Shown here in pieces: positions 16,790 through 20,478 of a stretch of 21,704 bases of DNA. Position 1 is the first letter of the stretch. Each line of letters begins with the position of its first letter. Made by a program: the position numbers and the translations under genes. Under the pieces are notes generated by a model. It did not search any database. It was not told the DNA's origin and saw nothing but the letters and a program-made list of their open reading frames with translations. The DNA comes from a virus. The stretch covers positions 1-21,704 of IMG/VR virus record IMGVR_UViG_3300009503_000599; one strand, given 5' to 3'.

Positions 16790-16795
16790 CTCAAA

Positions 16796-18046
16796 ATGCC
16801 TGCCGCGCCCGACCCCCGGCTCGCACTGGCGCTCGCAGAGTGCAATGATGCACTCATGCGGTACCAGGATCCCAAGATCGAGCGGGCCGGCAGGCGCCGG
16901 CGGTACTACCAGATCCGCCCGTATGTGAGGATCGTGCGGCAGCACGGGCGCATCGAGGTCCTTCGCCGCCGCATCCGGCTGGGCTACTGCGATGAGATCA
17001 CGCTGCGGGAGGCGCGCAAGCGCAAGGCGGAGATCATGGCCACCATCAACGGTGGCCAGGTCACCGTTGCATCGCAGCTCACGCTGGCTGCGGTGATCGA
17101 GCGATTCCGCGCAGCGCACATCCCGACCCTTGCCTCTACGACGCGGGCCAAATATGAGGCCCACCTCAGGAACCACATCCTGCCGGATCTTGGCCACCTC
17201 AAGGTCGGGGAAATCGACCGGTCAGTTATCGCGGAATGGCTCCTCTCCAAGGCGGCGCTCAGCAAGGCGACCAGACTGGACCTCCGAAATCTCCTCGGCG
17301 CAATATTCCGCTGCGTCACCGAGTGGCGCATGTGGGTCGGCGAGAATCCGGCGCACCGAGCACCTGTCGGCCGCGGCGGCGCGCCGGCGCGAGAGTTCGC
17401 CAGGCTGACCGACGAGCAGGTTCTCCGCTGGCTGGACGAGATCCGCGACACGGCGATCATGCCTGCGTGGAAAGCTCGACAGTTGGCGGAACTCTGCCTG
17501 GTGGCCGGCCTCAGGGTGAGCGAGGCCTTGGCCCTGCGGTGGCGCGACATTGACCCAGCTAGGCGCACGATCAGGATCGAGCGCCGCTATGCTCGCGGTG
17601 ATGTCGATGCGCCAAAGTCGGCCGCCAGCCGGCGCGAGCGCTACGTCGGTCCGCTCGCTGATGAGATTCTCTTCCGCCGGCCAGAAGGGGAGGATGACGA
17701 TGACCCAATCTTCGTGCGGCCAGACGGCCGCATCCCTGACGACCGCGATCTCCAGGAGCATGTCTGGCGTCCAGCCGCTGAGCGGGCCGGCATTTACCAC
17801 CCGGGCTTCGGACTGCACAGCCTGCGCCGGCTTTCTATCACGTGGCGTCAGGAATGTGGAGCCACGTTGGTAGAGGCCATGCGCCAGGCCGGCCACAGCC
17901 GCCCGGCGACGACCGCGCTCTACACGCTCGACGATCTGCGCCGCGAGGTCCAGGTTGTGGAGCGCTTGCGAGCGAGGCTACGCGAACCAGAGCGAATGGG
18001 ACAAAACGGGACACGGTTAGAGGAGGGCGAGTGGCTAACCCATTGA
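16796..18046 (+). CDS. int: Tyrosine recombinase (integrase)
   Basis: This 416-aa protein integrates and excises the phage at its attachment site. It starts at ATG 16796 after GGGAGGT. Residues about 45-85 form an arm-binding-like N-terminal part, about 95-185 a SAM-like core-binding domain (TLAAVIERFRAAHIPTLASTTRAKYEAHLRNHILPDLG), and about 205-385 the catalytic domain. All catalytic residues are visible: Arg240 (AGLRVSEAL), Lys274 (PKSAASRR), His341 and Arg344 (LHSLRRL), His367 (AGHSRPATT) and Tyr376 (ALYTLDD). The gene ends 5 bases before a tRNA-Val 3' half, its predicted attP core. No excisionase was recognised. Confidence 0.96.
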   Translation: MPAAPDPRLALALAECNDALMRYQDPKIERAGRRRRYYQIRPYVRIVRQHGRIEVLRRRIRLGYCDEITLREARKRKAEIMATINGGQVTVASQLTLAAVIERFRAAHIPTLASTTRAKYEAHLRNHILPDLGHLKVGEIDRSVIAEWLLSKAALSKATRLDLRNLLGAIFRCVTEWRMWVGENPAHRAPVGRGGAPAREFARLTDEQVLRWLDEIRDTAIMPAWKARQLAELCLVAGLRVSEALALRWRDIDPARRTIRIERRYARGDVDAPKSAASRRERYVGPLADEILFRRPEGEDDDDPIFVRPDGRIPDDRDLQEHVWRPAAERAGIYHPGFGLHSLRRLSITWRQECGATLVEAMRQAGHSRPATTALYTLDDLRREVQVVERLRARLREPERMGQNGTRLEEGEWLTH

Positions 18047-18221
18047 AAACATGGTGGGCCCGTGGCGACTCGAACGCCAGACCTCTACCGTGTCAAGGTA
18101 GCGCAGATCAATCACTTACGGACACGGCTGTTGAAAACAAAGGACTTACCGTGTTTGCGTTTGGGACGAAACGGGACACGGAATGGCGAAGCGAAGGCGA
18201 AACTGGTACAAAACGGGACGC
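17998..18221 (+). repeat. Three direct repeats flanking attP, arm-type site candidates
   Basis: Three near-identical copies of a 17-bp sequence lie in the same orientation: GGGACAAAACGGGACAC (17998-18014, inside the integrase end), GGGACGAAACGGGACAC (18163-18179) and GGTACAAAACGGGACGC (18205-18221). One lies left and two lie right of the tRNA-like core. Such direct repeats on both sides of a core are how lambda-like integrases bind arm sites. An integrase-binding role is inferred. Confidence 0.6.
18052..18104 (-). other. attP: attP core: 3' half of tRNA-Val(GAC)
   Basis: Read on the minus strand this is a perfect tRNA 3' half: anticodon stem CTACC/GGTAG around TTGACAC (anticodon GAC), variable loop AGGTC, T-stem TGGCG/CGCCA around TTCGAGT, acceptor strand CGGGCCC, discriminator A and encoded CCA (18052-18054). 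No D-arm or 5' acceptor strand follows, so it is not a functional tRNA gene. It lies directly after int. Since the int side is phage and the other side is neither host tRNA nor obviously host DNA, this is an unintegrated attP. Integration would restore the host tRNA-Val. Confidence 0.88.
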
Positions 18222-18237
18222 AAACTGGAGGCGAACA

Positions 18238-18414
18238 ATGGGCGAAAGCGTCAGGCGAACAATGGGCGAATATGAGGACGTGGTCAGGATGTGGTTCCAG
18301 CTCAACCGCGCCCGCGAGCGCGAGAGAAGGCTGGCAGCATGGCTCTTTTTCTCGGTCGCTTGCGCCCTCATAGAGGCCGCGGCGCTTGTGGTCCTACTTG
18401 TGGAGCAGCTCTGA
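18238..18414 (+). CDS. Small single-span membrane protein
   Basis: This 58-aa protein starts at ATG 18238 after GGAGG (18227-18231). The first 30 residues are charged (EYEDVVRMWFQLNRARERERR) and the remainder is a transmembrane helix (LAAWLFFSVACALIEAAALVVLLVEQL). Its stop overlaps the start of the Cas12/TnpB-like gene (TGATG), which suggests coupled translation. A second in-frame ATG at 18262 lies in an exact copy of the 18 bp around the first. No family is recognised. Confidence 0.6.
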   Translation: MGESVRRTMGEYEDVVRMWFQLNRARERERRLAAWLFFSVACALIEAAALVVLLVEQL

Positions 18415-19802
18415 TGCCCGCAGGCGATCTCGAGGCCGCACTCCGCGCTGTGGAGCGCCAGGCGGAAGCAATGCAAGCGATCGAGCGCAAGATCGCCGCG
18501 GTCTACAGCAGGCGCTCCACCGACTTGCCAGCGACGGCACCGCCAAACGCCGACCACCACACAACTATCGACCGAGGCGGTTCGCACCCGCCGCGTGGCG
18601 TGGCAGCGGAAATGCCGTCGCACGCCCCAAGTGGGGCAACGAGGACCGTCCAGCGCGTGCTCGCTCTGCGGGCCGCGCTGGACTGGTCCAACCCAGAGCA
18701 CCGCGAACTGTATCGCGAGCTTCGCGATCTCGGATGGCAGGCGGCCCACTACCGCAACATGATGCTGCGGGCCAAGTGGGCGCAGGCATACGGCTGGACA
18801 GCCCCGTCCGCGCCGGATGACAAGGCCGGTCCGAGCAAAGCGGTGCGCCAGCGGGAAAAGGGTGAGCTTTCCGGCGACGCGTACAGCGCCGCGGAGATGG
18901 AGGTGCAGGGCATCTGGACGCGCGAGGGCAAGCGCATCCTCGCCGGCTCGCCACTGCCCGAGTGGCGACCCAATGCTGCACTGTCCGTCACCGGCAAGGC
19001 GAAGCGCGAGGACTCCGGCGTCCAGCTCGTCAAGCGAGGCGACGAGTACGCGGTGAGGCTGCGCGCGCGGTCGAACAAAGATCCGCGCGGATCATGGATC
19101 GAGATTCCGATCAAGCGCGGCTCCGCGCGCGATGAGTGGCAGGGTCCGATTCTGGACAAGATGCTGCGCTGGGAAATCCCGATGAAAAAAGCAACCGTGC
19201 ACATCGAGCGGCGCGGCATCACGGTGCGGATCACGTATCCGCTGAGTCTGCCTGCCCTGCCCCCGCCCGGCGAGCGCCGCGCCGTAATTTCCGTCACCGA
19301 GGACGGTAGGTTCCTGATCCGCACAGAGACCCAGACGCGCGATGATACGAGGCGCTATCAGCACTTGCTGCGGCGCGCTGACGATTGGGAGCTGATACGC
19401 CGGCGAGCTATGGCACAGATCGGGCGATGCAAGGGCCACGCGCGAAGGAAGCGCGAGGCGATCGCGCGCTTGGGTTGGCAGGACTGGTTGCGAGACTACC
19501 TGCATCGCTGGACTGCTGACATCGTGCAGTGGTGCCGATCGCAGCTCGTCGGCACCATCGAGATTGCGGAAATTGGGGCGCTGACGTGGCCAGCGGCGCA
19601 GTTCCGGCAACTCCTGGCATACAAGGCGGAGGAGTATGGCATCAAAGTCACAGCTGGCGCTGACGTAACCACCGAGCCAGGCGAGCGCGCAGCGGAAGCT
19701 GAGCTGCGCCGGCGATTGGCGAAAGCGAAAAAGCGCCGCGAGGCACTGCGAGAGATTGAATACCAACTCAACTCGGAGGTTAAACATGGAGAACCAAAAT
19801 GA
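18414..19802 (+). CDS. Compact TnpB/Cas12-like protein with degenerate RuvC
   Basis: This 462-aa protein shows the domain order of TnpB and compact type V effectors. Residues 80-170 are helical (ALDWSNPEHRELYRELRDLGW, AAEMEVQGIW). Residues 175-282 form a beta-rich wedge-like domain (AGSPLPEWRPNAALSVTG, GPILDKMLRWEIPMKKATVHI, GITVRITYPLSLP). A RuvC-like region spans 288-430: strand I AVISVTEDGRFLI, bridge helix IGRCKGHARRKREAIARLG, strand II VGTIEIAEIG (Glu386) and AYKAEEYGIKV. Ser293 occupies the place of the first catalytic Asp. The zinc ribbon is absent (only Cys339 and Cys374), and no clear third Asp follows. It is probably an RNA-guided DNA binder without nuclease activity. The adjoining repeat-spacer array argues for CRISPR function; a TldR-like TnpB derivative is the alternative. 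Confidence 0.7.
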   Translation: MPAGDLEAALRAVERQAEAMQAIERKIAAVYSRRSTDLPATAPPNADHHTTIDRGGSHPPRGVAAEMPSHAPSGATRTVQRVLALRAALDWSNPEHRELYRELRDLGWQAAHYRNMMLRAKWAQAYGWTAPSAPDDKAGPSKAVRQREKGELSGDAYSAAEMEVQGIWTREGKRILAGSPLPEWRPNAALSVTGKAKREDSGVQLVKRGDEYAVRLRARSNKDPRGSWIEIPIKRGSARDEWQGPILDKMLRWEIPMKKATVHIERRGITVRITYPLSLPALPPPGERRAVISVTEDGRFLIRTETQTRDDTRRYQHLLRRADDWELIRRRAMAQIGRCKGHARRKREAIARLGWQDWLRDYLHRWTADIVQWCRSQLVGTIEIAEIGALTWPAAQFRQLLAYKAEEYGIKVTAGADVTTEPGERAAEAELRRRLAKAKKRREALREIEYQLNSEVKHGEPK

Positions 19803-20115
19803 TGGGATCATTCTGACCAGCGAACTGGACAGCATCGCACGCAAAGGGCTGAACGACGTGCGAGCTGTTTTCGATGGCCAGATGGACGACGAAACCATCG
19901 AGAAAGCCAACATGGCAATCAAGCTGCTTCGCATCAGCAGCGGACGATACAGCGCAGAAACCAACCGCATGGCTTTGGCTTTCCGGCTGGCCCGCGCGCT
20001 GGAGGTGCCGAAACAGGAGATGGTGTGGCTCTGGAGGCAAATGTCCGGGGCTTCGCAAGCGCAGAAGCAGATCGCTGCTGATAGCGCGAGCAGCCACGGG
20101 AAAGAAGGCGATTGA
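19786..20115 (+). CDS. Small helical protein coupled to the Cas12/TnpB-like gene
   Basis: This 109-aa protein starts at ATG 19786 after GGAGG (19774-19778) and overlaps the effector gene by 17 bases. It is mostly helical: ELDSIARKGLNDVRAVFDG, DDETIEKANMAIKLLRISSGRYSAETNRMALAFRLARALEVPKQEMVWLWRQM. The C-terminal 20 residues look disordered. I recognise no family. Lying between the effector and the array, it is a candidate accessory subunit or regulator of the RNA-guided module. Being an unrelated phage regulator that happens to be coupled is equally possible. Confidence 0.7.
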   Translation: MENQNDGIILTSELDSIARKGLNDVRAVFDGQMDDETIEKANMAIKLLRISSGRYSAETNRMALAFRLARALEVPKQEMVWLWRQMSGASQAQKQIAADSASSHGKEGD

Positions 20116-20123
20116 ACGGCAAT

Positions 20124-20195
20124 GATGCGACGGCCTCTCGCATTCTCATCTGCAAGCCGCTGTGCGACGATGAGTTGCCGAGAGGCCGTCGCATC
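20124..20195 (+). ncRNA. Array leader hairpin with possible anti-repeats
   Basis: A perfect 17-bp inverted repeat (GATGCGACGGCCTCTCG at 20124-20140, its complement at 20179-20195) encloses a second 6-bp stem CTCATC/GATGAG (20145-20150, 20169-20174). The right arm runs into repeat 1. GATGCGAC (20124-20131) is complementary to the first 8 bases of the repeat. CTCGCATTCT (20137-20146) can pair with the last 10 bases of every repeat, with only G-U wobbles. This may be a tracrRNA-like element, a processing hairpin or an attenuator. Alternatively 20138-20167 is a decayed repeat, since it is bounded by TCGCA and TGCGA. Confidence 0.5.
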
Positions 20196-20478
20196 GAATG
20201 CAAGATTCATCGTGGAGTGCGAGCAAGACGGACTGGCTGCCTCGCGAGCAATACCGCGTCGCATCGAATGCAAGATTCATCGTGGAGTGCGAGTCCGCTG
20301 GGCAGAGTGGCGGCGCCGCGGGGATTACGTCGCATCGAACGTGGTTTCCGTCGTGGGGTGCGAGAAGTTGGCTGGCAATGCGTCGGCCTGCAAATCGGCG
20401 TCGCATTGGGCCAGGAATTCGTCGTGGGGTGCGAGATGTGCTGCCGCAGGCTGCACATGATTGATCGTGGAGTGCGAG
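20188..20478 (+). CRISPR. Short CRISPR-like array, four repeats plus a truncated fifth
   Basis: Repeats of 36 bp lie at 20188-20223, 20258-20293, 20329-20364 and 20400-20435, separated by unrelated spacers of 34, 35 and 35 bp. Repeats 1 and 2 are identical; 3 and 4 match them at 27 and 25 of 36 positions. A fifth, degenerate copy ends at 20478 and keeps only its last 16 or so bases, after a 27-base gap. All begin near GTCGCA and end TCGTGGRGTGCGAG, and TCGCA pairs with TGCGA to close a stem. The invariant 3' end with a drifting middle fits a type V crRNA handle transcribed on the + strand. No cas1/cas2 is nearby, so new spacers are probably not acquired by this locus alone. Confidence 0.78.

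What the first reader, a model, noticed from the sequence alone, without database searches (positions are those of the whole stretch)
17998..18221. Intact attP: tRNA-Val(GAC) 3' half with direct-repeat arm sites
The tRNA half ends in an encoded CCA and folds perfectly from the anticodon stem onward, next to int, with no 5' half. If this were an integrated prophage, the int-side junction would have a whole tRNA. The window therefore comes from a free or circular phage genome. Three 17-bp direct repeats, one left and two right, are likely integrase arm sites.
Basis: partly seen in the sequence, partly recalled or inferred. Interest (0 to 1): 0.7.

Follow-up and report, generated by a model that had tools for sequence, protein, structure and literature searches.

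The report
Phage attachment site for bacterial tRNA-Val
This is the unintegrated docking site of a soil phage: it carries the second half of a bacterial valine tRNA gene beside its integrase, which points to an uncultivated acidobacterium (Bryobacterales) as host and shows that the sequence is not an integration junction; the site itself is of an ordinary, well-known kind.

Summary
Window 18052-18104 (minus strand) is an exact 53-nt 3' part of a tRNA-Val(GAC) gene, from the anticodon stem to the encoded CCA. It lies 5 nt from the end of a tyrosine integrase gene and has no real 5' half. Three bipartite repeats, TGGGACRAAACGGGAC, flank it: one left, inside the end of int, and two right. All 11 exact core matches among 84,980 species genomes are Acidobacteriota, mostly Bryobacterales. 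In six Bryobacterales genomes a related integrase converges on a complete tRNA-Val(GAC); two of these and a third genome also hold a half copy on another contig, sharing 50-53 nt. That is what integration at such an attP leaves behind. A sister contig (83% identical integrase) repeats the whole attP. A circular 28.5-kb relative has the same neighbouring genes but lacks exactly the 1.47-kb int-attP cassette. An IHF-like site follows the CCA in most elements. Verdict: a genuine unintegrated attP (anticodon type) of a temperate Bryobacterales phage, a new member of a known kind. 'Free phage' is well supported, though the record is a linear fragment and a tandem lysogen is not excluded. More unusual is the neighbouring TnpB/Cas12f-like gene with a CRISPR-like array.

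The parts
16796..18046 (+). Tyrosine integrase gene (416 aa)
   Evidence: PF00589 4.1e-14, PF14659, PF22022; PHROG integrase 7.3e-50; R240, H341, R344, H367 and Y376 present in the expected motifs
18052..18104 (-). attP core: 3' part of tRNA-Val(GAC), anticodon stem to CCA
   Evidence: exact in 11 Acidobacteriota tRNA-Val(GAC) genes
18090..18096 (-). Anticodon loop TTGACAC, probable overlap region of strand exchange, between the inverted anticodon-stem repeats 18085-18089 and 18097-18101
   Evidence: inferred: identity between attL and attR copies of relatives begins at the 5' strand of the anticodon stem; class A sites in Islander
17997..18012 (+). Left arm-type repeat TGGGACAAAACGGGAC, inside the 3' end of int
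   Evidence: conserved in L016
18162..18177 (+). Right arm-type repeat 1 TGGGACGAAACGGGAC
   Evidence: conserved in L016
18204..18219 (+). Right arm-type repeat 2 TGGTACAAAACGGGAC (1 mismatch)
   Evidence: conserved in L016
18036..18048 (-). IHF-like site TTTCAATGGGTTA between core and left arm (overlaps the int stop codon)
   Evidence: 8 of 9 consensus positions; same offset in 11 of 13 element-side flanks, in none of 8 uninterrupted tRNA genes
18108..18121 (-). Conserved flank CCGTAAGTGATTGA next to the core, in place of a tRNA 5' half
   Evidence: GTAAGT at -17/-18 from the core in five of six half-sites
18132..18137 (-). Conserved TTTTCA, fixed at -35/-36 from the core, role unknown
   Evidence: present in all six half-sites
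16790..18259 (.). int-attP cassette, absent as a block from the circular relative L017/L073
   Evidence: edges read from the sequences, accurate to about 10-20 bases

Best explanation
This is the complete attP of a temperate tailed phage of Bryobacterales (Acidobacteriota), seen in the unintegrated state. The phage tyrosine integrase recombines the 53-bp core with the matching stretch of the host tRNA-Val(GAC) gene, most likely within the anticodon loop TTGACAC. The phage's own 3' half replaces the host's, so the host keeps a complete tRNA-Val next to int, and the host's old 3' half is pushed to the far end of the prophage, beside the gene at 18414. Repeats on both sides (one left, two right) are bound by the integrase N-terminal domain, and an IHF/HU-type bend between core and left arm folds the site, as in lambda. 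Shown: core identity, gene order, attL- and attR-like products in relatives, conservation of arms and of the IHF-like site. Inferred: point of crossover, binding by Int and IHF, activity of this copy, exact host species.
For: Exact 53-nt core only in Acidobacteriota, 11 of 11. Integrase with catalytic residues. Related int next to complete tRNA-Val(GAC) in six Bryobacterales genomes; half copies in G087, G136 and G214 sharing 52, 53 and 50 nt with the complete copy. Second attP in L016 with the same core, flank and three arms. Phage genes on both sides, and a circular sister genome without the cassette. IHF-like site at a fixed offset; HU/IHF-family genes in the host order. RecT 79% identical in a Bryobacterales genome.
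Against: No integrated copy of this very phage was found; the int relatives in genomes are 33-53% identical. attL and attR of relatives lie on separate contigs of MAGs and were not joined. Five relatives show no exact-hexamer tandem arms. In G214 the related int lies beside the half copy instead. No binding or recombination data.
Confidence: 0.94

Rival explanations
1. The window comes from a chromosome: two tandem prophages or a concatemer share the tRNA-Val site, and 18.05 kb is the junction element-core-element, which has the sequence of an attP.
For: Several different elements use this same tRNA, and L002 has different arm repeats on the two sides of its half, as a junction of two elements would.
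Against: Both sides of the window's half carry the same arm repeat, and genes of both sides are neighbours in the circular relative L017/L073, so they belong to one backbone. A tandem array of identical phages stays possible.
Confidence: 0.05
2. The site is a relic: the half tRNA is an old attachment site that this phage no longer uses.
For: Close relatives L017 and L018 lack a tyrosine integrase altogether, so the cassette is dispensable.
Against: Int frame intact with active-site residues; core exact to host genes; arms and IHF-like site kept in L016 although the DNA is only about 77% identical.
Confidence: 0.04
3. It is a phage-encoded tRNA-Val, possibly degenerate in its 5' half, kept for translation.
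For: ARAGORN calls a 74-nt tRNA.
Against: Rfam tRNA model has no match at E<1 against 69 bits for a host gene; the fold is not a cloverleaf and no better than shuffles; no consistent likeness to the host 5' half.
Confidence: 0.01

Closest known systems
tRNA-gene-targeted phages and islands with a 3' tDNA fragment and anticodon-centred crossover (Islander class A; PMC4383910)
   Same: Tyrosine integrase; 3' tDNA fragment ending at the tRNA end; integration restores the tRNA and displaces a fragment; crossover probably at the anticodon loop
   Different: No difference of kind; the host group (Bryobacterales tRNA-Val) is little studied
Phage lambda attP (PMC4880445)
   Same: Core flanked by arm-type sites on both sides with an IHF-like site between core and arm; two-domain-binding integrase plan
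   Different: Core lies in a tRNA gene; arms are bipartite with about one helical turn between halves; only one clear IHF-like site; no Xis identified; left arm lies inside int
tRNA-dependent lysogeny (PMC10865867, title and abstract only)
   Same: A link between lysogeny and tRNA genes
   Different: By its title that behaviour needs phage-encoded tRNA genes; here only a 3' half is carried

Membership tests
tRNA-targeted attP of a tyrosine-integrase element (Islander class A) | Tyrosine integrase encoded next to the site | tested here: met
   16796-18046, PF00589 4.1e-14; catalytic motifs
tRNA-targeted attP of a tyrosine-integrase element (Islander class A) | tDNA fragment identical to the end of a host tRNA gene | tested here: met
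   53 nt exact in 11 Acidobacteriota genomes
tRNA-targeted attP of a tyrosine-integrase element (Islander class A) | Integration leaves a restored tRNA at one end and a displaced fragment at the other | tested here: inconclusive
   met in relatives (G087, G136; partly G214), but on separate contigs; no integrated copy of this phage found
tRNA-targeted attP of a tyrosine-integrase element (Islander class A) | Crossover at the anticodon loop | tested here: inconclusive
   shared runs start at the anticodon stem in three genomes; the exact point is not resolved
Lambda-type attP | Arm-type sites on both sides of the core | tested here: met
   three repeats, chance excluded by shuffles, conserved in L016; as sequence only
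Lambda-type attP | Site for a DNA-bending protein between core and arm | tested here: met
   IHF-like sequence at a fixed offset in 11 of 13 flanks; as sequence only
Lambda-type attP | Integrase binds both arm and core sites | not testable with these tools
   needs footprinting
Lambda-type attP | Excisionase gene and sites | tested here: inconclusive
   none among the proteins scanned, but small ORFs were not all scanned and the record is incomplete

The most novel reading that the evidence does not exclude
The int-attP cassette was gained by (or lost from) a phage line that carries a RuvC-degenerate, Cas12f/TnpB-like protein with its own CRISPR-like array, so that the attP docks an RNA-guided DNA-binding module into Bryobacterales chromosomes, next to the displaced tRNA half, where it could act on host or rival-phage genes during lysogeny.
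Probability: 0.2. Interest if true: 0.75.

Novelty: new member of a known kind. Interest (0 to 1): 0.32.

Why it matters
The site points to the host group of an uncultivated soil phage from sequence alone, and gives an integrase with matching attP and attB for a phylum with few genetic tools. It also shows tRNA-Val(GAC) as a shared entry point for several different elements in Bryobacterales. As a mechanism it is ordinary.

Tried and rejected
A whole phage tRNA, as called by ARAGORN, was rejected: Rfam, the fold and the alignment do not support it. A remnant of a host 5' half in the phage flank was tested by shuffling and is not consistent. A search for the neighbouring 462-aa gene in 257 Bryobacterales genomes found nothing, but had no positive control. 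BLAST of the core and integrase in annotated phages gave only distant matches. Structure prediction of the 462-aa neighbour gave a poor model (mean pLDDT 48), so no fold search was run. Spacers of the CRISPR-like arrays matched nothing beyond short chance hits in the loci held. A literature search for prophages at tRNA-Val in Acidobacteria found no paper with all four terms.

Full report
What is there. The window is a 21,704-base IMG/VR virus record. It runs from a truncated prohead protease/capsid gene through tail, lysis, RecE-like and RecT genes to int, then the site in question, then a 462-aa gene at 18414-19802 and a truncated replication initiation gene at the right end. The minus strand at 18052-18104 reads GCGCTACCTTGACACGGTAGAGGTCTGGCGTTCGAGTCGCCACGGGCCCACCA: anticodon stem and loop, variable region, T arm, 3' acceptor strand and encoded CCA of a tRNA-Val(GAC). 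It occurs once, and never in shuffles even with 3 mismatches.

No 5' half. ARAGORN calls a 74-nt tRNA here, but its D arm hardly pairs. Rfam's tRNA model finds nothing at E<1 in 521 bases around it, while the same search on a host gene gives 69 bits. The predicted fold is not a cloverleaf and no better than shuffles. Alignment of the phage flanks to the host 5' half gives shuffle p values from 0.03 to 0.69, which is not a consistent signal.

Host. The 53-nt core was searched for exactly in one genome each of 84,980 species. All 11 matches are Acidobacteriota MAGs, several named Bryobacteraceae or Bryobacterales, and in each it is the 3' part of a complete tRNA-Val(GAC). Independently, the phage's RecT is 79% identical to a protein in a genome of the same order. 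An exact-match search cannot exclude hosts that differ by one base.

Integrated relatives. Among 257 genomes of the order, 14 hold a relative of the integrase at E<=1e-40. In six of them (L030, L034, L038, L021, L036, L037) the integrase gene converges on a complete tRNA-Val(GAC). G087 and G136 of these, and also G214, hold a second, half copy on another contig. The shared runs between complete and half copies are 52, 53 and 50 nt; all begin at the 5' strand of the anticodon stem (or one base before it) and end at or just after the CCA. This is the expected attL/attR pair, with crossover probably in the anticodon loop. Islander lists anticodon-centred sites and 3' fragments as common classes (PMC4383910). 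In G214 the related integrase lies beside the half copy (L031), so arrangements vary.

Sister attP. L016, with an 83% identical integrase, has the same core with two changes, the same conserved flank, one arm repeat at the end of int and two on the other side. There too the site has phage genes on both sides.

Cassette. L017 and L073 are the two ends of one 28,633-base record that share an exact 127-base terminal repeat, which indicates a circular genome. It holds no PF00589 integrase and no PF00239 resolvase. Its genes align on both sides of the window's int-attP stretch, and the stretch of about 16790-18259 is missing. So the genes on both sides of the attP belong to one phage backbone, and int-attP is a gain-or-loss cassette; which of the two is not decided.

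Flanking sites. The arms are TGGGACRAAACGGGAC at 17997, 18162 and 18204. Comparable repeats of 10-11-bp period but different sequence stand near the core in several other elements at the same tRNA, for example GTCCAA in L004, L005 and L009, and TGGCACA and GTCCAA on the two sides in L002. Five relatives showed none by the exact-hexamer test. Three to four nt after the CCA, 11 of 13 element-side flanks carry a match of at least 7 of 9 to the IHF consensus WATCAANNNNTTR (three perfect; the window 8 of 9); none of the eight uninterrupted tRNA genes has one at that offset. The consensus itself is from general knowledge. Genomes of the host order encode HU/IHF-family proteins. On the other side TTTTCA is fixed at -35/-36 from the core in all six half-sites; its role is unknown. 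Core, bending site and arms on both sides match the general plan of lambda attP (PMC4880445).

Free or integrated. The half-site has phage genes on both sides and is not a junction with host DNA. The simplest reading is an unintegrated genome. A tandem lysogen or concatemer would give the same local sequence, and the record itself is a fragment; comparison with L016 suggests that about 5-6 kb is missing between its right and left ends, which is an inference.

Verdict. Observation confirmed; interpretation supported with those limits. It is a new member of a well-known kind, useful for host assignment. The neighbouring 462-aa gene and its array are listed separately, as noticed in passing.

Noticed in passing
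window 18414-19802 (+) and 20124-20478: A 462-aa TnpB/Cas12f-like protein (NCBIfam guided_TnpB 5.9e-7, below its cut-off; PADLOC Cas12f 3e-4) is followed by a CRISPR-like array: 37-nt repeats every 70-71 bases, spacers of 33-34 nt, with a strong hairpin in front that overlaps the first repeat. By eye the RuvC-I aspartate is replaced (ISVT.DG in the three-sequence alignment), so it may be nuclease-dead. Best candidate for a finding of its own.
   Followed up: partly
L017 6001-7383 with L073 10419-10880; L018 6001-7230 and 7650-7971: The same gene (85-88% identical) and an array with related but different repeats and different spacers occur in two further phages (8 repeats in L073, 5 or more in L018), so the module is conserved while spacers turn over. 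No protospacer was found in the loci held.
   Followed up: partly
window 19789-20115 (+): A 108-aa protein between the TnpB/Cas12f-like gene and the array is conserved in L017 and L018 (79 and 69% identical) and has no family match; possible partner of the module.
   Followed up: no
L017/L073 (IMGVR_UViG_3300031950_000010): This 28,633-base record has an exact 127-base terminal repeat, so it looks like a complete circular genome without tyrosine integrase or resolvase-type recombinase.
   Followed up: partly
L021 and L037: In two integrated relatives the integrase frame stays open through the tRNA core, with its stop beyond the CCA end, so the C-terminus of the integrase may differ between free and integrated states.
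   Followed up: no
L002 5500-5950: A half tRNA-Val with TGGCACA repeats on one side and GTCCAA repeats on the other, and a 'NAASFAP' type gene downstream, looks like a junction of two different elements at the same tRNA.
   Followed up: partly
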